DNA from: a virus
Direction: 5' to 3' (one strand)
DNA: 52,946 bases
IMG/VR virus record: IMGVR_UViG_3300042465_001424
Location: 1-52,946 of that record
Position numbers and translations under genes: made by a program. Shown here piece by piece: positions 5,216 through 48,493 of this stretch. The notes under the pieces are model-generated. The model was given only the letters and a program-made list of their open reading frames with translations. It made no database searches and was not told the origin of the DNA. The first letter of the stretch is position 1, and each line of letters opens with the position of its first letter.

Positions 5216-6760
5216 ATGTCAGATGCAATAGTAAAGAATCTTAGTTTTGGGTTAGAGGCTCAAAATAAAGTTTTTGAAGGCGTTACAAAATTAACAAAAG
5301 CAGTAAGTTCAACCTTAGGTGCTGGCGGTAAATGTGTAATGTTAGAAGATAGTCAAGGTAGACCAATTATTACAAAAGATGGTGTAACGGTAGCGGATAG
5401 TATTATCTTGTTAGATCCAGTAGAAAATATGGGGGCAAGACTTTTAAAAGAGGCGGCTCGCAAAACAGTTAAAGAAGCCGGAGACGGAACTACAACTGCA
5501 ACAGTATTAGCTCACGCAATTTTAGAGGAGGCTTATAAAGTACAATCTAAAACCAACGCTAGAGAGTTAAAGAATGGGATTGAATTAATGACTGAAGCGG
5601 TTATAACCTATCTAGAGTCTATCGCTGTCCCGGTTACAGGAGATATGATTGACAATATTGCGACTATATCCACAAATAATGATCCAGTGCTTGGTAAAAT
5701 TATTGCCGATGCTTTTAGATCCGTTGGGGAAACCGGTATTGTTATGATGGAAACATCATCAAATGCAGAGACAGAAATAGAAGTTATTGAAGGCGTTCAA
5801 TATGATAAAGGTTTAGTTAATTCAAATTTTATAACTAATCCTAGTAAAAGAACATCAGAGCTAGATAATCCTGTAGTTTTAATTATTGAGTCTCCAGTTG
5901 AAGGTATTAGACAAATACAATCAGTATTAGAATATGTAATTAAAACAAACCGTTCTTTATTGATTATTGCAGATATAGAAACAAATGTTTTATCTGCTTT
6001 AGCAATGAACAAAGTTAAAGGTAATATAAAAGTAAATGTAATTAATGCGCCAACTTATGGTGTTAATAAAAAGGATACATTAGCAGATCTTGCTTTATTA
6101 ACTGGTGCAACAATTATAAACGAAGACTTAGGTGACGATATGGATTTAATCCAGCCAGAGCACTTAGGCACTTGCTTAAAAAGTATTACAGACGATTTTG
6201 AAACTATAATTCAGGTTGGTGGAGTTACTGAAGAAATTCAAGTATTAATTGATTCAATTAAAGAACAACTAGAAGGTAAACTTAGTCCTGGTGAAGTTAT
6301 TAGATTAGAAAAAAGATTAGCTAGACTATCTGCAAAGGTAGCTATTGTAAAAGTAGGTGCTAATTCAGATATAGAATTAAAAGAAAAAGCAGATAGAGTT
6401 GAAGATGCAATTTGCGCAACTAAAGCCGCTATTAAGGAGGGGATTGTACCGGGCGGCGGAATTGCTTTGTTAGATGCGTCAAAAAACTTTGGCGTACCAG
6501 ATATAGGTGGAGAGGTTTTGTTAAAAGCCATTCAAGCCCCGTATAAAACAATATTAAACAATGCCGGTATTAGTTACGCAATAGAGCTCAGTGCTGATGG
6601 ACATGGTTTAAATGTTATTACGGGCGAATATGTCAACATGATTGAAGAGGGAATTATTGACCCATTATTGGTTACCAAATCCGCATTAAGAAATGCATCG
6701 TCTGTAGCTGTTACAATATTATCAACTGATTGTGTAATTAATAACTTACGCGTATCATGA
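5216..6760 (+). CDS. groEL: Phage-encoded chaperonin GroEL
   Basis: 514 residues, colinear with GroEL/Hsp60 (about 545). ATP-site motifs are intact: TKDG at 53-56, the GDGTTTA loop (Asp90) and the VED...PGGGIAL segment in the C-terminal equatorial domain. The protein stops without the Gly-Gly-Met tail of bacterial GroEL. It should form a folding ring, possibly specialised for the phage's own capsid or giant virion proteins. The gene follows a 54-nt AT-rich leader after the lysis genes and overlaps groES by ATGA; the order groEL-groES is the reverse of the usual bacterial operon. The sequence is divergent and not a recent host copy. Confidence 0.95.
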   Translation: MSDAIVKNLSFGLEAQNKVFEGVTKLTKAVSSTLGAGGKCVMLEDSQGRPIITKDGVTVADSIILLDPVENMGARLLKEAARKTVKEAGDGTTTATVLAHAILEEAYKVQSKTNARELKNGIELMTEAVITYLESIAVPVTGDMIDNIATISTNNDPVLGKIIADAFRSVGETGIVMMETSSNAETEIEVIEGVQYDKGLVNSNFITNPSKRTSELDNPVVLIIESPVEGIRQIQSVLEYVIKTNRSLLIIADIETNVLSALAMNKVKGNIKVNVINAPTYGVNKKDTLADLALLTGATIINEDLGDDMDLIQPEHLGTCLKSITDDFETIIQVGGVTEEIQVLIDSIKEQLEGKLSPGEVIRLEKRLARLSAKVAIVKVGANSDIELKEKADRVEDAICATKAAIKEGIVPGGGIALLDASKNFGVPDIGGEVLLKAIQAPYKTILNNAGISYAIELSADGHGLNVITGEYVNMIEEGIIDPLLVTKSALRNASSVAVTILSTDCVINNLRVS

Positions 6761-9916: not shown

Positions 9917-10513
9917 GTGAGAGGTGTCTTCGATTTCATAGTTAAACCTGTGGGGTCTAGATATGAAAATAGTATTGAGGTTGAAGGTAAAGAATTAATT
10001 CTTAATACTAAGATAGAAACTTTCAAATCTGTTAACAATATAGCTGAAGTGATTTCAATTCCATTAGCATATAAAACAGATATAAAAGTAGGTGATACCG
10101 TAATTATACATCATAATGTTTTTAGAAGATTTTATGATATAAAAGGTAAACAAAAAAATAGTAGAGCATACTTCAAAGAGGATTTGTACTTTTGTAGCGC
10201 GGATCAAATCTACTTATATAAAACAGATACACATTGGAGATCATTTGGAGATAGATGTTTTGTTAAACCATTAAAAAATATAGACCATTTAAAGCTTGAT
10301 AAAGAGCGTAAACTTATTGGTATATTAAAATATGGTAATGACTCTTTAAAAGAGTTAAAAATCAATCCTGGGGACTTAGTGGGTTATACTCCTTTCGGAG
10401 AATACGAATTCATTATAGACAACCAGAGATTATATTGTATGAAATCTAATGATATTGTTATTAAGTATGGATATAAAGGAGACGAAGAGGAGTATTGTGG
10501 CCGCGGGACATAA
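9917..10513 (+). CDS. Tandem GroES-like (cpn10-fold) protein
   Basis: 198 residues from a GTG start. Two halves each show cpn10 features. Half one has 'FIVKPVG', 'LILNT' at the mobile-loop position, 'VISIPLAY', 'VGDTVII' and 'DQIYLY'. Half two has 'GDRCFVKPL', 'IGILKYGN', 'PGDLVGY' and 'NDIVIKYG'. Comparable double-domain proteins occur in T4-like marine phages, to my recollection, and are sometimes annotated as co-chaperonins. It may cap the phage GroEL with a different symmetry or act as a structural clasp. It overlaps the small terminase gene by 47 nt. The resemblance is a motif reading and is not a proven homology. Confidence 0.55.
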   Translation: MRGVFDFIVKPVGSRYENSIEVEGKELILNTKIETFKSVNNIAEVISIPLAYKTDIKVGDTVIIHHNVFRRFYDIKGKQKNSRAYFKEDLYFCSADQIYLYKTDTHWRSFGDRCFVKPLKNIDHLKLDKERKLIGILKYGNDSLKELKINPGDLVGYTPFGEYEFIIDNQRLYCMKSNDIVIKYGYKGDEEEYCGRGT

Positions 10514-30413: not shown

Positions 30414-33400
30414 ATGCCTATATATACTTATAATGGAGCAATGTTTACGGAAGAAGAAGTAATTAGTAAAGCAGAAGCAAAAGGGCTTGATCTGGAAGCT
30501 TATATTAATAAATTTGGTATAACTAAAGAGGAAGATGAAACCGTTGAGGAGCCGGGAAAGCCAAAACCTGTTGCAAAAAAGGGTGCGCCTGCAACAGCAA
30601 AAGGTACGGCGTCCAAATTGGTAAAACCTTCATCGGAGTTAAAATCTGATATATGGGGAGAAGACAGATCTAAACCTGAATTTTTACAAGAAATACAAAA
30701 AGTATCTCAACCCGATATAAAGTTTCCAAAACCTGTTAGTGTTAAAAAACCAAAACAAGAATTAAAATCTATATCTGAATACCAATCAAAAGTAAAAAAA
30801 GAAGAAGAAAGCGGGTTTTCTAATTTTCTTAAAGAATCATTTGATTCCGGAATTTCTACAATTGTGCAATCTGTTTATAAAGCTCCTGAGTTTTTATATG
30901 ATGCCACTGCTGCATTTATTACAGATCCTATTGCTAATTTAGCAAATGATATTATAGGGGTTGAAAGACAAGATTCTTCTTCGGAAAAAATAATGGAAAC
31001 ATTCGGAATTAAAAACATTCCGGCAGATATTTTACAAAAAAGAATTAAGGAATCAAATAAAATAATACAAGATTATAGTGCTAAAAACGGGGTTGATCCT
31101 TTAACTGCTATAGAGAATGGAAACTATTTAGGAGCAGCAAAACTAGTTGCAGGCGGAACAATTCAATCAGTTCCTATGATGGCGGCAGCTATGTTTAGTG
31201 GTGGAAGTTCAACTGCATTAGCTGGAATATCTGCATCTACAGCAATTTCAAAAGCGGAACAATTAAAAATAGAACAACCTGAAATGGACGTTCAAACTAG
31301 AACTATAAATGCCGCGGCGTCTGGATTGCTGGAAGGATATTTAGGCAATTTATTTACAGGTGCTTCTGGAGCAGTTGTAAAAAGAATATTAACTGATAAA
31401 GGAACTAAAGAAGGGGCAAAAGTTATTTCTAATGGCTTAATGAGTACATTAGAAAAAGCCATTGAAAAAAACCCAATGATTGGTGTACTTGGCGAGGTTG
31501 CTGAAGAAAGTAGTGTTGAATTAGGCAATCAATTAAATGATATAAATTCTGGAATTAGAAAAGAATTAGATTATAGATCAATTACTAATGCCGGTATTAT
31601 TGCAACAGGAATGGCTGGTACAAATACTGTGCCTGTATATGGGGCAAAAGGTTATATGAAAATGGCTGAATATAATCAAGTAAAAGCCATAAACAAAGAA
31701 ATTAATACCTTAACAAATCAATTATCTAATCCTTATATTAATGATTCAGATAAAAAAATAATTTCATCGCGAGTTAATAGACTTGTTGATGAGAATAAAA
31801 CTATTGTAGGAACTAGTCTGGAAAAAATTAAAGCATTACCTGAAAATATAAAAACAGAAATAAATACTATTAATGCAGATTTAGATGATATTAAAAGTAA
31901 ATATTTAGACTTAGCAGACAATGACGCCATACCGTTGGATGTTAAAGCAGCAATGGGTGAAGAATTAAAACTTCAAGGTAAACAATTATATGATAGAAAA
32001 AATAGTATCATTGAAGGTAATTATATATATGAAGACTTTAATAAATTACCAACTGAAGAACAAATTAGAATTAAAGATGTAGCAACTCAAAACTTAGTAG
32101 CAGATTCTGAATTAACTGGTAAACCAAAAACTAGTTTTGCCGATGAAGAAATAAATAAAGAAGCCGTAACTATATATAATAATGAAGTAAAAGCAAAAGA
32201 TTTTGTTTCTGATGTAGAAAAAACAAAAGTTGCTATACAAGCTATTGGTCTTGGTGAAGATGTAGAAATGCCTGAATTAAATTCTGCTAATGATGTTATT
32301 AATTATCTATCAACTAATACTACATTAGACAAGAATACTATAGAAGACGTTGCAGATTCTTATGGTGCATTTATTCCTTTGCCAAATGGTAAAGAAGTAT
32401 TAATTATAAATAAAGAAGCTGCTAACATGGATCAGGTGGTTACAACCGGTCAACATGAATTTTTACATAAACTTATATACAAGGCGGTAAAAGATAATAC
32501 AGATTTACAAAAACAAATAGGGTCTCAATTATATAATCACATTGAGAACTATATTGGTACAGAAGAATTTAATAATACTGAATTTAAAAGTAGATACGAT
32601 GCTTATAAGAATGATTTTGAAAATACTAAATTAGAATTAGATAGTAAAGTAACTAAAGCTAAAGACTTTTTTAATAAAGGACTTATAACTCAAGAAAGAT
32701 ACGACCAAGCCGTAACAGACGCGGATAATGCAACCGCTAAAGCTGAAGGTAAATATCTAGAAGAAACATTGCCATTATTGTCTGAATCATTATCAAAAGG
32801 AGACATAAAATATAATGAAACATTCTTTACTAAAATAGGTGATATATTACGTAGAGTATTCCAAAAATATGGACTAAGCAAAGTAAAGTTTAATACGGGT
32901 AAAGATGTGTTTGATTTTGTTAGAGACTATAATAAAAGTTTTGAAAAAGGTCAATTTACTAAAGCGTTTAAGGCGTTAGCGAAAGAAGGCGTTTATAAAG
33001 GATCTATAGCAAAAGGTAACATTCCAGCAAAGCCAACCGCCAAACCAGAAGTTAAATTATCTAAAATACAAATTGATAAACTTAAACAAGATTTAGTTGA
33101 TTTAGAAGATGAATACGACGAAGGCTACGGAGATATTGATGAGGAAGAATATAAGAATAGAAAAGCCAATATAGAAGGTAAACTTAAAACGGCCGTTAAA
33201 TTAGAAGAAAAAGGTGTTCCTGTTAAGGAAGTGAAAAAAGAAGTAACTGAAGAAGATGAGGTTAAAGAAATAATAAAAAATGCTCGTGGTTCAATATCTT
33301 CAGATAAAGTACAACAAATATATGAATCTAAAGGCGTAAATGGTTCAGCAGAAATAATAAGACTATTTGAGCCTATAACTAAAAAGATTGTTGACAAGCG

Positions 33401-36400
33401 TAGAGATGCTCCGGGTTTTGATAGAGAATTATTAACTGACGAGATAAATACAGGAGTTGGTGGAATTTTAGATTTAATAACTAAATATAAACCTGAATCT
33501 GGTATACCATTAGCTGCTTATATAAATAAGTATTTGCCAGTTAGAGCAATTGCTACTTCAAAAAGAATATTAGATCAACAATTTAATAAGGACGCATCGG
33601 AAGAAAAGGGGCTAATAGCAACTGAGACAGCTGATCAAAACTTTATTGAAACAACAAAAGAAAAACCAAAGTATAAGAATGCATTAGAGTCAAAAGTTTT
33701 TGAACCGGAAGTCTTAAAAACTATAAACGATAAGATATTAACAGTAGTTAGAACTTTAAAATCTAAAATTGATGAGCCTATTTCATTGAATAAAACTATT
33801 ACCCCATTAATTGCTGAAATTAGAGACGAAATTGGTAAGCAAGTTGATATTGATGTTAAAACCGCAATGGGCGGCAAAAAAGACAATCAATTAAAAAATT
33901 GGATGTTAAAGAACAAAAAATATGTTCTTGAAAATATGACTACTACTTGGTTAATGGGTAAAGATGGTCAAGGAGGAATGCCGATTGCGGTTCAAAAACA
34001 AATTGACGGAAGATGGGTTAATTTTCCTGAATGGGCTGGTAAAAAAATTGATAGAGAAAAAACAACTACAGATCAAGCTGGTAGAACTTCTGGCGCTGAA
34101 TTAACTAGAAGATTGCCAAGTGTTAATAATAATATATCTGATGCTGATTACTTAGAACAAGTAATAGGGACTGATGGTAATCCTTTACGTGGCAGAAAAG
34201 AATCATTAGCAAAAGCAATAGCTGAAGAATCGACATTTGATATTATTAATGATGATTTGCAAAATGATGGGCCTATTTCAGAAGCTTTAATAAAGAATCA
34301 GGAAAGACTTGGGGTTCAATTAACAAACAATATTACTAATGAATTTGCAAAGCAAACAGAAAGAGGTAACATTAAATTCTCTAAATCTTTAATAAAAGGA
34401 ATATCTATATCTCAAGATAAGTTAGGCAAAGATATATTCAACGCTAAAACAATTGAAGATGAAGCAAAGGTAATAAGTAAATGGATTGCCAGCGATGGTA
34501 GATCATTAAGAACTTTTGCAGCCATGATTGGTAAACAATTAAGCAAATTAAAAACTAATAAAGGGTTATTTGAAAATATAATATTACCAACAATAAAAAC
34601 TTATTCAAAGTTTGAAGGGTTAGTTGGTAAAGACTCTTATAGATTAGGAGAGGTTTCAAGAGGTATATCTATATTCTTTGGGGAAGAAAAAGTGCCTTTA
34701 TGGAAAGACATTGATGAGATAAAAAATAATTGGGGAAGAAGCGCTCCTATAATGGAGAAGGAAGCAATAAGCGCAAATGATCAATTGTTTGATATAATTA
34801 ATTACTTTAAAAATAACAATTATTCCAATGAAGATTTTGAAGGGTATTTACAATTTTTACGAAAAGATCAAAGAGGCTTAATACGAAAACTTTCAAAACC
34901 GGGTATTGCTGTTATAGGTTTAAATAAAAAACAAAAGCCATACTTAGAGCATAATATGCCGGTACAAAATATTGTTGAAAAAATTCTTGATTTTTATGAC
35001 AATAAAATTACAGAAGATCAATTAAGAGAATTTATTGATAAAGGAAAAGTAAACCTTATTCCAGATGAATTAAATAAACTTTTACCAAATTATGAAGTTG
35101 ATAAAAACAGAATGGAAGACCCAACTGTTTTATTATATTTACAAAATTTATTAGATAAAGGTTTATCTATTTATAATATAAAAGCGGAATATGGATCTAA
35201 AGCTAACTTCAATGCGTTAGTTAAAATTGCTCAATCAAAAGTAAATTCAAAAGAAAATTTACAAAATATATATAATACTATTGCAATAGAAAATTCTTTA
35301 GATGTTAAAAAATCTATTAACCCAAAAGGTATTTCGGTATTTGATTTCGATGACACCGTTGGCATGACTAAAAGTAACGTGTTATACGCGATGCCAGATG
35401 GCACTTTTGGTAAATTAAATGCGGAAGAATTTGCAAAAGAAGGTTCTAATATGCTACAAGAAGGAGCTATATTTGATTTCTCTGAATTTAGCAAAGTTGT
35501 TAATGGCAAACCAGGTCCAATGGTTGAAAAGATGAAGAAGATGATTGGCAAGTTTGGTCCTGAAAACTTCTTTATACTCACGGCTCGCCCTGCTAATGCC
35601 GCGGGTCCAATACATGAGTTTTTATCTTCTATTGGTATTGATATACCTTTAGAAAATATAACTGGCTTAGGAAGCAGTTTAGCGCAATCAAAAGCAGATT
35701 GGATGACAGCGAAAGCAGCAGAAGGATATAATGATTTTTACTTTTCCGACGATGCAATCCAGAATGTTGATGCTGTTAGAAATGCTTTAAACGTTCTTGA
35801 CGTTAAATCAAAAATACAGCAAGCTAAAATTAAATTTAGTAAAACTATATCGCCTGAATTCAATAAGATTATTGAGGAGAATAAAGGTATGGAGCACTAT
35901 AAAGTGTTCTCGGATATTGTTGCAAGAAGAAGAGGTAAGTCTAAAAACAAGTTTGATTTTTATGTTCCACCATCTGCTGCTGATTTTGAATTATTATTGT
36001 ATAACTTCTTAGGTAAAGGTGAACGTGGAGAAGAACATCAAAAATTCTTTAACGAAGCATTACTTAAACCGTATGCAAATGGTAATGATTTGATGGATGC
36101 GGCAAGACAATCTATTAAGAAAGATTATAAAGCATTGTTAGATTCATTCCCAGACATACGTAAGAAAATGGAAACATTAACTCCAGACGGAGATTATACT
36201 TACGATCAAGCAATACGTATTGCAATGTGGAACGAAGAAGGCGTTGAAATACCTGGTATATCCGAAAGAGATTCAAGAAAATTAACAGATTTGGTAAACA
36301 ATGATCCTGAGCTAGCTGCGTTCAAACAAGGCTTAATAGTTACTGGCAGACAAGGTAAAGGATGGATTAACCCTACTGAATACTGGGACGCAAATACTAT

Positions 36401-38075
36401 CATTGCGGATCTACATGGTTTAACAGAAGGTGAAGGACGTAAGAAATTCCTTGCTGAGTTTATTGACAATGCTGAACAAATGTTTGGAACATGGTCTCAA
36501 GGAAAATTGGTTGGCCCTAACATTAACAAAGTAGAAGCCGTATATGGTTCGAATGTAAGAGAAGCTATTGAAGATGTACTGTACAGAATGACAACTGGTA
36601 AAAACAGAAGCCAAGGCAAGGATAAAGAAACAAGCGCTTGGAGTAATTGGGTGAATGGTTCTACTGGAGCTATTATGTTCTTAAACACTAGATCTGCCGC
36701 ATTGCAATTAATTGGGGCAGTCAATTTCTTAAACTTAAGAGATAATAATCCTTTTAACGCTGGTAAAGCATTTCTAAATCAACCGCAATATTGGAAAGAT
36801 TTCTCACGTATTTGGAATTCAGATAAAATGAAAGAAAGACGCGGTGGATTAAAAGAAGATGTTGCCGCTGCTGAGATTGCAAATGCCGCCGCGGGTAGTA
36901 AAAATAAACCTGCTGCTGTTATAGCTTACTTATTAAAAATCGGTTATACGCCGACGCAATTAGCAGATAGTTTTGCTATTGCCTCTGGGGGTGCTCCATT
37001 TTATAGAAATAGAATTAAATCTTATTTGAAAGAAGGATTAACAGAACAAGAGGCGGAAGATGCGGCTTGGAATGATTTTACAAAAGTATCAGATGAAACA
37101 CAACAATCAGGTGATCCTAGAGATATATCAAAACAACAAGCGAGTGGAGCGGGAAGGTTATTATTAACATTCCAAAACACGGCAATGCAACAATCTAGAA
37201 TTGTTAAAAAATCTTATTTAGATCTAAGAGCTGGTAGAGGTAATGCTAAAACACATATTTCAAAAATAGTATATTATTTGGCAGTACAAAATACATTGTT
37301 TGCTGTGTTGCAACAAGGATTATTTGCGGTTGCCTTTGATGATGATGATGAAGAAAAAGATACAGAAAAAGAAAAAGTCAAAAAGAAAACAACTAATGAA
37401 AGATTAATAGATGTCGCTGACGGTGTGTTGGATACAATATTAAGAGGAACCGGATTTGCTGGAGGAGTTGTTTCTGTATTAAAGAACATGACTAAAAAAT
37501 ACCTCGACGAAAAAGATAAAAACTTTAAAGCAGATTATGCTAAAGTTGTATTAGAAGGGGCTAACATATCACCGCCAATTGGATCTAAACTTAGAAAAGT
37601 ATATACTGGACTTCAACAAACTAAATTTGAAAAAGACCTTATAGACGCAAGAGGTTGGGGTGTTATGCAAGATGGAAGAGTTCATTTAGGGCCAATGTAT
37701 GGAGTGGCTGGAAAACTTGCTGAAGCAACAACTAACTTGCCAATTGATAGGCTTGTAAACAAAATTGAAAATATATCTCAAGCAATGAATTCTGAAAATC
37801 AAGCATGGCAAAGAGTTGCTGTAGGAGTTGGGTTTACACCTTATTCAGTTGGTATAGAAGAATCAAAAGGTGATGTAGAAATTAGAGCAAAAGCAAAAGA
37901 AATACGTAAAGAAGAAGGATTAATAAAAAGCGAAGAAACAAGAGAACGTAAAAAAGATTCTATTAGAGCTTTACCAATTAGGGAACGCATTAGAATAAAA
38001 AGAGAGGATAGACTTAAAAGAAGAGAAAACGAATTTAAACGCAGGGAAAGAAAAGCAAATAGAAAAATGGGTTAA
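30414..38075 (+). CDS. Giant internal virion protein with zincin, sigma-like and HAD modules
   Basis: 2553 residues. In order: an N-terminal 'FTEEEVISKA' short domain, a Lys/Pro-rich linker, membrane-prone Gly/Ala stretches around 245-280, a zincin motif HEFLH (681-685), a sigma-region-2-like segment (about 955-1060; LLTDEINTGVGGILDLITKYKP...YINKYLPVRA), a mixed segment, a full HAD signature (VFDFDDT, Asp1644/Asp1646; ILTAR; SK; YFSDD) and a C-terminal region with a hydrophobic stretch followed by DDDDEE and a very basic tail. This is a polyvalent internal protein expected to be ejected with the genome, so its enzymes would act in the cell at once. It is the last gene of the plus arm. Confidence 0.75.
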   Translation: MPIYTYNGAMFTEEEVISKAEAKGLDLEAYINKFGITKEEDETVEEPGKPKPVAKKGAPATAKGTASKLVKPSSELKSDIWGEDRSKPEFLQEIQKVSQPDIKFPKPVSVKKPKQELKSISEYQSKVKKEEESGFSNFLKESFDSGISTIVQSVYKAPEFLYDATAAFITDPIANLANDIIGVERQDSSSEKIMETFGIKNIPADILQKRIKESNKIIQDYSAKNGVDPLTAIENGNYLGAAKLVAGGTIQSVPMMAAAMFSGGSSTALAGISASTAISKAEQLKIEQPEMDVQTRTINAAASGLLEGYLGNLFTGASGAVVKRILTDKGTKEGAKVISNGLMSTLEKAIEKNPMIGVLGEVAEESSVELGNQLNDINSGIRKELDYRSITNAGIIATGMAGTNTVPVYGAKGYMKMAEYNQVKAINKEINTLTNQLSNPYINDSDKKIISSRVNRLVDENKTIVGTSLEKIKALPENIKTEINTINADLDDIKSKYLDLADNDAIPLDVKAAMGEELKLQGKQLYDRKNSIIEGNYIYEDFNKLPTEEQIRIKDVATQNLVADSELTGKPKTSFADEEINKEAVTIYNNEVKAKDFVSDVEKTKVAIQAIGLGEDVEMPELNSANDVINYLSTNTTLDKNTIEDVADSYGAFIPLPNGKEVLIINKEAANMDQVVTTGQHEFLHKLIYKAVKDNTDLQKQIGSQLYNHIENYIGTEEFNNTEFKSRYDAYKNDFENTKLELDSKVTKAKDFFNKGLITQERYDQAVTDADNATAKAEGKYLEETLPLLSESLSKGDIKYNETFFTKIGDILRRVFQKYGLSKVKFNTGKDVFDFVRDYNKSFEKGQFTKAFKALAKEGVYKGSIAKGNIPAKPTAKPEVKLSKIQIDKLKQDLVDLEDEYDEGYGDIDEEEYKNRKANIEGKLKTAVKLEEKGVPVKEVKKEVTEEDEVKEIIKNARGSISSDKVQQIYESKGVNGSAEIIRLFEPITKKIVDKRRDAPGFDRELLTDEINTGVGGILDLITKYKPESGIPLAAYINKYLPVRAIATSKRILDQQFNKDASEEKGLIATETADQNFIETTKEKPKYKNALESKVFEPEVLKTINDKILTVVRTLKSKIDEPISLNKTITPLIAEIRDEIGKQVDIDVKTAMGGKKDNQLKNWMLKNKKYVLENMTTTWLMGKDGQGGMPIAVQKQIDGRWVNFPEWAGKKIDREKTTTDQAGRTSGAELTRRLPSVNNNISDADYLEQVIGTDGNPLRGRKESLAKAIAEESTFDIINDDLQNDGPISEALIKNQERLGVQLTNNITNEFAKQTERGNIKFSKSLIKGISISQDKLGKDIFNAKTIEDEAKVISKWIASDGRSLRTFAAMIGKQLSKLKTNKGLFENIILPTIKTYSKFEGLVGKDSYRLGEVSRGISIFFGEEKVPLWKDIDEIKNNWGRSAPIMEKEAISANDQLFDIINYFKNNNYSNEDFEGYLQFLRKDQRGLIRKLSKPGIAVIGLNKKQKPYLEHNMPVQNIVEKILDFYDNKITEDQLREFIDKGKVNLIPDELNKLLPNYEVDKNRMEDPTVLLYLQNLLDKGLSIYNIKAEYGSKANFNALVKIAQSKVNSKENLQNIYNTIAIENSLDVKKSINPKGISVFDFDDTVGMTKSNVLYAMPDGTFGKLNAEEFAKEGSNMLQEGAIFDFSEFSKVVNGKPGPMVEKMKKMIGKFGPENFFILTARPANAAGPIHEFLSSIGIDIPLENITGLGSSLAQSKADWMTAKAAEGYNDFYFSDDAIQNVDAVRNALNVLDVKSKIQQAKIKFSKTISPEFNKIIEENKGMEHYKVFSDIVARRRGKSKNKFDFYVPPSAADFELLLYNFLGKGERGEEHQKFFNEALLKPYANGNDLMDAARQSIKKDYKALLDSFPDIRKKMETLTPDGDYTYDQAIRIAMWNEEGVEIPGISERDSRKLTDLVNNDPELAAFKQGLIVTGRQGKGWINPTEYWDANTIIADLHGLTEGEGRKKFLAEFIDNAEQMFGTWSQGKLVGPNINKVEAVYGSNVREAIEDVLYRMTTGKNRSQGKDKETSAWSNWVNGSTGAIMFLNTRSAALQLIGAVNFLNLRDNNPFNAGKAFLNQPQYWKDFSRIWNSDKMKERRGGLKEDVAAAEIANAAAGSKNKPAAVIAYLLKIGYTPTQLADSFAIASGGAPFYRNRIKSYLKEGLTEQEAEDAAWNDFTKVSDETQQSGDPRDISKQQASGAGRLLLTFQNTAMQQSRIVKKSYLDLRAGRGNAKTHISKIVYYLAVQNTLFAVLQQGLFAVAFDDDDEEKDTEKEKVKKKTTNERLIDVADGVLDTILRGTGFAGGVVSVLKNMTKKYLDEKDKNFKADYAKVVLEGANISPPIGSKLRKVYTGLQQTKFEKDLIDARGWGVMQDGRVHLGPMYGVAGKLAEATTNLPIDRLVNKIENISQAMNSENQAWQRVAVGVGFTPYSVGIEESKGDVEIRAKAKEIRKEEGLIKSEETRERKKDSIRALPIRERIRIKREDRLKRRENEFKRRERKANRKMG

Positions 38076-47728: not shown

Positions 47729-48493
47729 TTATAGGTAATCAAGGACTTGAGAGGGTTCTACGTTGTCAATTAACTTTTTAATTGCTTGTTTTTTTATCTC
47801 TGAAATTCTTACATAAGCGCTTGCCCCTTCGATACCTAATTTATCCGCTATCTCATTTGCCGAATACTTATCACAGTCTAATCCATAACTTAATCTTAAT
47901 ACTTCATACTCACGTTCATTTAAGTGTTTAGTCAATAGACTCTTTAAATATAAATTCATAAGGTTTATATTATAAGGCTCAGTTTGATCCGGAATTTGAT
48001 AAAGCATGTTATCTTCGTCGTCATCATTAATCTGTTCATCGATGCTTAAGAATATGGAATTAAAAAACATTGCAACCATCGTATGGTCTTTGCCATTATC
48101 TTTTCTAATTTCATTTAGTTTATGTTCTGGAATCTTAATTGAGCCTCTATTAATATCAATAGCACGTCTAATTGAGCCTTTAATTCTTTTTGATAGAAAC
48201 GACTTAATAGTTTTTTCTTGATCAGTAGAAGCGTTTAATGTATCCCATTCAATTTTATCAACAGCTAGTATTAACCCCATAGATCCATGTTGCATAAGAT
48301 CCGTAATATCTAGTACTCCGCACGCTTGGGTTGTAGTTGAAAACTTCTTTGCAATATTCTCTACCAAAGGTAAAAACTTAGCAATAAGCCGGTCCCTTGG
48401 GTATGATTGAAAATCATTATTTAAACTATCTTTATTAGTTTGTTTAATATCTTCTTTGTATCTAATGTAATTTGGTATATTGTAACTTTTCAT
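47729..48493 (-). CDS. Sigma-70-family factor
   Basis: 254 residues. Region 2 covers about 35-115: 'LIAKFLPLVENIAKKF', 'DLMQHGSMGLILAVDK', 'FLSKRIKGSIRRAID'. Region 4 (about 190-245) has 'LNEREYEVLRLSYGL', a helix-turn-helix 'SANEIADKLGI' and 'VRISEIKKQAIKKL'. Region 1.1 is absent and region 3 reduced. It likely directs host RNA polymerase to phage promoters, and the repeated elements at 44947, 49626 and 51860 are candidates. It is followed by a 70-nt spacer before the ERF operon. Confidence 0.88.
   Translation of the reverse strand: MKSYNIPNYIRYKEDIKQTNKDSLNNDFQSYPRDRLIAKFLPLVENIAKKFSTTTQACGVLDITDLMQHGSMGLILAVDKIEWDTLNASTDQEKTIKSFLSKRIKGSIRRAIDINRGSIKIPEHKLNEIRKDNGKDHTMVAMFFNSIFLSIDEQINDDDEDNMLYQIPDQTEPYNINLMNLYLKSLLTKHLNEREYEVLRLSYGLDCDKYSANEIADKLGIEGASAYVRISEIKKQAIKKLIDNVEPSQVLDYL

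What the first reader, a model, noticed from the sequence alone, without database searches (positions are those of the whole stretch)
30414..38075. 2553-residue virion protein combining a zincin motif, a sigma-like segment and a HAD phosphatase
HEFLH at 681-685 and a complete HAD signature (motif I at 1644-1648, ILTAR, SK, YFSDD) lie in one protein at the internal-virion-protein position, with a basic tail and membrane-prone stretches. Such polyvalent proteins are known from phages and mobile elements, but this combination looks unusual. Ejection with DNA would let the enzymes work before transcription begins.
Basis: partly seen in the sequence, partly recalled or inferred. Interest (0 to 1): 0.7.

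Follow-up and report, generated by a model that had tools for sequence, protein, structure and literature searches.

The report
Modular ejected phage polyprotein, predicted self-cleaving
A phage, probably of a flavobacterium, encodes one giant protein, most likely carried in the virus particle, that strings together a protease-like domain, a piece resembling a bacterial sigma factor and a phosphatase-like domain; related phages swap some of these parts in and out at a recurring short peptide that looks like a cutting site.

Summary
Window 30414-38075 is one 2553-residue ORF with HEFLH (681-685), a four-motif HAD signature (D1644xD, T1723, K1760, D1780) and a sigma region 2.1-2.2-like stretch (1006-1037). 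HExxH occurs in all full-length first-round homologues and 104 of 110 non-redundant proteins. The HAD catalytic positions are invariant in 34 sequences. The sigma resemblance beats 150 of 150 shuffles. Virion association is by homology only: the N-terminal core matches Cellulophaga phage phi18:3 gp123, found in virions by MS/MS.

First, the protein is modular: HAD is absent, degenerate, interrupted by an ADP-ribosyltransferase-like insert or replaced by other domains in relatives. Second, module junctions carry a peptide, K-[FY]-S-[KLRQ]-[ST]: 117 occurrences against 5.4 expected, 116 outside modules. Identity falls from 0.45 to 0.09 right after it at the main swap site. Different junctions encode its serine with different codon families, so the peptide rather than copied DNA recurs.

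Best reading: an ejected polyvalent protein with interchangeable effectors, cut at this peptide, probably by its own zincin. Polyvalent zincin proteins are known (Iyer 2017); the junction peptide and the sigma and HAD modules are not described there. Cleavage, ejection and enzyme activities are untested.

The parts
30414..38075 (+). 2553-aa polyvalent protein, whole ORF
30414..30713 (+). aa 1-100, N-terminal segment; residues 7-77 conserved in most first-round homologues
   Evidence: profile map
30981..32213 (+). aa 190-600, core shared with MS/MS-detected virion protein phi18:3 gp123 and with phi38:1 gp101, phi19:3 gp129, elemoA QLF85284
   Evidence: hmmsearch E 1.3e-20, 3.7e-22, 1.1e-22, 3.2e-50; MS/MS note in record
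32211..32993 (+). aa 600-860, zincin-type metallopeptidase module
   Evidence: HExxH in all full-length first-round homologues; Glu784 invariant in A4, possible third ligand; helix after two strands in model
32454..32468 (+). HEFLH (aa 681-685)
33054..33068 (+). J1, degenerate junction peptide KLSKI (aa 881-885)
   Evidence: an FSK/YSK/LSK-type peptide in 28 of 67 proteins at this junction; low pLDDT 859-884
33294..34373 (+). aa 961-1320, sigma-like module
   Evidence: Foldseek PDB hits dominated by sigma factors
33429..33524 (+). aa 1006-1037, sigma region 2.1-2.2-like stretch
   Evidence: hhalign to RpoD/RpoS/RpoH/FliA, 0 of 150 shuffles
34374..34388 (+). J2, junction peptide KFSKS (aa 1321-1325)
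   Evidence: seam profile
34416..35213 (+). aa 1335-1600, swappable X module with EHxxP signature, function unknown
   Evidence: A1 consensus; absence or replacement
35319..35831 (+). aa 1636-1806, HAD-type phosphatase module
35832..35846 (+). J4, junction peptide KFSKT (aa 1807-1811)
35847..38072 (+). aa 1812-2553, conserved C-terminal module with basic tail
   Evidence: 57-94% identity over 42 sequences; model unreliable, pLDDT 51

Best explanation
The protein is an ejected polyvalent polyprotein. An N-terminal core places it in the virion (shown only by homology to an MS/MS-detected protein). It is probably ejected with the DNA (inferred). During maturation or after entry it is cut at K-[FY]-S-[K/L]-[S/T] linkers, most likely by its own zincin in cis (inferred), releasing separate modules: core plus zincin (about aa 1-882), a sigma-like module (883-1322), X plus HAD (1323-1808) and the C-terminal module (1809-2553). 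The sigma-like module may bind host RNA polymerase early, since it resembles the sigma part that contacts the beta-prime clamp (inferred). The HAD module probably dephosphorylates a nucleotide or nucleic acid end (inferred from general HAD chemistry; substrate unknown). The X/HAD stretch is a cargo bay whose contents change between related phages (shown by comparison).
For: One ORF with all motifs. HExxH in 104 of 110 non-redundant proteins. HAD catalytic positions invariant; HAD-fold hit 1zjj prob 0.80. Sigma-like stretch, 0 of 150 shuffles; best PDB hit is SigmaS (E 0.086) and about 20 of the top 50 are sigma factors. Core homologous to an MS/MS-detected virion protein. Junction peptide: 117 vs 5.35 expected (maximum 9), no comparable excess in eight altered patterns, 116 of 117 outside modules, 83% within 12 aa of a module edge vs 9% random. 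Serine is AGY at J4 and TCN at J1/J2/J3. Identity 0.45 before J2 and 0.09 after it in 60 proteins. The linkers at J1, J2 and just before the HAD fall in low-confidence stretches of the model. Module swapping.
Against: No cleavage has been shown. Thirty-seven proteins with HExxH lack the strict peptide, and one of six without HExxH (L239) has it twice, so the link of peptide to zincin is weak. The MS/MS-detected homologue phi18:3 gp123 matches only the core; its near relative phi19:3 gp129 has no HExxH and no [FYL]S[KR][ST] peptide. P1 DdrB and DarB and the elemoA and MW202828 proteins lack the K[FY]S[KLRQ][ST] peptide. Counts at homologous junctions are not independent, and my module edges were drawn next to the peptide. 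Foldseek E-values against PDB are all above 0.001. No zincin fold hit among those listed. One group of sigma-module variants (L032 and relatives) shows no sigma similarity.
Confidence: 0.5

Rival explanations
1. The protein works uncut as an ejection or internal virion protein. The KFS peptide is a flexible linker or docking motif, and the zincin is an effector acting on host proteins.
For: Iyer 2017 notes that N4 vRNAP is packaged uncut despite its metallopeptidase domain and that some such domains may be effectors. The peptide is missing from 37 HExxH-bearing proteins.
Against: A precise five-residue consensus at several different junctions, with altered versions showing no comparable excess, is more specific than a linker needs; codon families differ by junction.
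Confidence: 0.28
2. The polyprotein is cut at the KFS peptide, but by another protease: a virion maturation protease or a host protease.
For: Peptide present without HExxH in L239.
Against: No maturation protease was recognised among the window proteins scanned, and no other window protein scanned carries K[FY]SK[ST]. Host proteases not tested.
Confidence: 0.15
3. The peptide is a by-product of a recombination seam in the DNA, without function in the protein.
For: It sits at module swap points.
Against: Serine codon families differ between junctions (AGY vs TCN), and the 15-mers are diverse.
Confidence: 0.05

Closest known systems
Polyvalent proteins of phages and conjugative elements (Iyer et al. 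2017, PMC5512222)
   Same: Large multidomain protein encoded next to virion genes, with a zincin hub and disparate catalytic domains; self-processing by the zincin was proposed there.
   Different: The main text does not mention sigma, phosphatase, haloacid or linker. Here a junction peptide, a sigma-like module and a HAD module are seen.
N4 virion RNA polymerase
   Same: Large virion protein with a metallopeptidase domain and an early transcription role.
   Different: Carries its own polymerase; here only a sigma region 2-like piece, so any transcription role would act on host polymerase.
Cellulophaga phage phi18:3 gp123, phi19:3 gp129, phi38:1 gp101; Flavobacterium phage elemoA QLF85284
   Same: Same genomic position at the end of the structural genes and homologous core.
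   Different: phi19:3 gp129 and phi38:1 gp101 have no HExxH; those two and elemoA lack the HAD DxDxT motif and the sigma pattern. gp123 was not scanned for these motifs.
Phage P1 DdrB
   Same: Polyvalent protein with a metallopeptidase domain, known to be cut before packaging.
   Different: No K[FY]S[KLRQ][ST] junction peptide; different modules.

Membership tests
Polyvalent protein class | Several unrelated predicted catalytic or binding modules in one polypeptide | tested here: met
Polyvalent protein class | Encoded among late virion genes | tested here: met
   Follows terminase, portal and virion structural genes
Polyvalent protein class | Delivered into the host at infection | not testable with these tools
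   Virion location by homology only
Zincin metallopeptidases | Conserved HExxH | tested here: met
   All full-length first-round homologues, 104 of 110 non-redundant proteins
Zincin metallopeptidases | Zincin fold and third zinc ligand | tested here: inconclusive
   Strand-strand-helix order fits and Glu784 is invariant in A4; no zincin among listed PDB hits
HAD superfamily | Four motifs: DxD, T/S, K, D | tested here: met
   Invariant in 34 sequences
HAD superfamily | HAD fold | tested here: met
   1zjj prob 0.80, though E 3.0; motifs I, II and IV on strands. Pfam PF12710 only E 0.094 in one member
Sigma-70 factors | Region 2 | tested here: met
   Regions 2.1-2.2 only, z 7.6; Pfam PF04542 E 0.14 in one of 45
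Sigma-70 factors | Region 4 promoter-binding HTH | tested here: not met
   Alignment to full-length sigmas returned region 2 only; not filed as a sigma factor

The most novel reading that the evidence does not exclude
A family of phages packages a programmable, self-cleaving effector cassette: a zincin polyprotein with a defined cleavage peptide at its module boundaries, whose cargo bay (HAD, ADP-ribosyltransferase-like, nuclease-like, others) is swapped between phages, and which injects a sigma-factor piece that takes hold of host RNA polymerase before any phage gene is transcribed.
Probability: 0.25. Interest if true: 0.85.

Novelty: new variant of a known kind. Interest (0 to 1): 0.62.

Why it matters
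If the peptide is a cleavage site, it turns the untested proposal that zincins process polyvalent proteins (Iyer 2017) into a precise prediction with exact fragment ends, and gives a way to find module boundaries and new effectors across a large set of metagenomic phages. A virion-delivered sigma-like module would be an early route to host RNA polymerase different from the N4 virion polymerase or T4 Alt.

Tried and rejected
No Pfam, PHROG or NCBIfam match above cut-off for the whole protein; Pfam rows such as SHOCT, MPH2 and GvpG are below cut-off. PDB sequence searches with the whole protein, HAD, sigma and C modules gave only chance-level rows. No INPHARED match to the whole protein or to the ART-like insert. 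C-module model too poor to use (pLDDT 51), so not fold-searched. Genome collection scan with the C module found no relative. The sigma region 1.1 hit in X (E 0.0064, below cut-off) was not pursued. Recombination seam considered and disfavoured by codons. General polyvalent motif hypothesis rejected: P1, elemoA and MW202828 proteins lack the peptide. The nuclease-like reading of the L027/L030 replacement is by eye only.

Full report
Observation. The window is a whole IMG/VR virus record of 52,946 bases. ORF 30414-38075 (+) encodes 2553 residues, with HEFLH at 681, DFDDT at 1644, ILTAR at 1721, SKADW at 1759 and YFSDD at 1776.

Context. Terminase and structural proteins relate the phage to Flavobacterium elemo phages and Cellulophaga podoviruses: terminase 44.5% to elemoA, 36-38% to phi38:1 and phi19:3, 64% to MW202828. 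The window also encodes GroEL, a GroES-like protein, a ribonucleotide reductase, thymidylate synthase and its own sigma factor. The big ORF is the last gene of the structural run. No annotated family and no INPHARED phage matches the whole protein.

Relatives. A first scan gave 46 loci. Later scans with the sigma and HAD modules matched at least 162 and 565 places (lists cut at 80). I assembled 186 proteins over 1800 aa and reduced them to 110 non-redundant ones.

Virion location. The core (about aa 190-600) matches elemoA QLF85284 (E 3.2e-50), phi38:1 gp101 (3.7e-22), phi19:3 gp129 (1.1e-22) and phi18:3 gp123 (1.3e-20). The phi18:3 record says gp123 was annotated on experimental MS/MS proteomics. 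This covers the core only; the enzyme modules are not in that evidence. Ejection is inferred.

Zincin. Every full-length first-round homologue has one HExxH with varying middle residues, and 104 of 110 non-redundant proteins have it. In the AlphaFold model (aa 596-1795, mean pLDDT 74.9) HEFLH lies in a helix after two strands, and Glu784 is invariant in that alignment. No zincin appears among the listed PDB fold hits, so the fold is likely but not proven.

HAD. The DxD, Thr, Lys and Asp positions are invariant in 34 sequences, motifs I, II and IV sit on strands, and the model hits PH1952 (1zjj) with prob 0.80, E 3.0. Pfam support is weak. L009 and L026 keep the domain but have lost part of the motifs.

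Sigma-like module. hhalign of 27 homologues to E. coli RpoD, RpoS, RpoH and FliA region 2 scores 26.9; the best of 150 column shuffles is 17.5 and the reversed profile 11.1. The match is aa 1006-1037 against regions 2.1-2.2. The divergent L038 module aligns in the same register (z 4.2); a third variant group does not. The top PDB fold hit is SigmaS, E 0.086, and about 20 of the top 50 are sigma factors. No region 4 was found. It resembles a sigma piece; I do not call it a sigma factor.

Modularity. Between the sigma-like and C modules relatives carry different cargo: X plus HAD, HAD with a 138-residue ART-like insert after motif I (L033, L034, L037, L046, L020; Pfam ART-PolyVal in two members, best E 3.9e-5), an extra module after HAD, or unrelated sequence. 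The extra module resembles a solo protein of Pseudomonas phage PA5oct that was found by ESI-MS/MS.

Junction peptide. K-[FY]-S-[KLRQ]-[ST] occurs 117 times in 110 proteins against 5.35 expected (maximum 9 in 20 shuffles); eight altered patterns show at most about a 2.4-fold excess. Of the 117, 116 lie outside modules and 83% within 12 aa of a module edge, against 9% for random positions. At J2 mean pairwise identity is 0.45 before the peptide and 0.09 after it in 60 proteins. At J4 the serine is AGY in all cases, and TCN at J1, J2 and J3. The window protein has KFSKS at 1321 and KFSKT at 1807, with a degenerate KLSKI at 881. Caveats: homologous junctions are not independent, and the edges were drawn next to the peptide, so the distance figure is partly built in; the codon, shuffle and altered-pattern tests do not depend on those edges.

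Interpretation. The simplest account is an ejected polyvalent polyprotein cut at these linkers, probably by its own zincin. Iyer 2017 proposed zincin processing of polyvalent proteins and cites cleavage of P1 DdrB; its main text has no mention of sigma, phosphatase, haloacid or linker. Against: 37 HExxH proteins lack the strict peptide, L239 has the peptide without HExxH, and other polyvalent proteins lack it. Cleavage is therefore a prediction.

Verdict. The finding is sound, partly explained by a known class, and more interesting than reported because of the junction peptide and swappable cargo.

Noticed in passing
window 47729-48493 (-): The phage encodes a separate conventional sigma factor (phrog_351, E 1.1e-23) besides the sigma-like module.
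   Followed up: no
window 5216-6760 (+) and 9917-10513 (+): Phage-encoded GroEL and a GroES-like protein.
   Followed up: no
L033, L034, L037, L046, L020: ADP-ribosyltransferase-like domain inserted inside the HAD domain after motif I.
   Followed up: partly
L009, L026: HAD domain with partly lost catalytic motifs, possibly a pseudoenzyme.
   Followed up: partly
L100:7815-8240: Solo homologue of the extra module is an ESI-MS/MS-detected structural protein in Pseudomonas phage PA5oct.
   Followed up: partly
L020: In this contig the protein is split into two ORFs between the sigma-like and HAD regions; may be a frameshift or assembly error.
   Followed up: no
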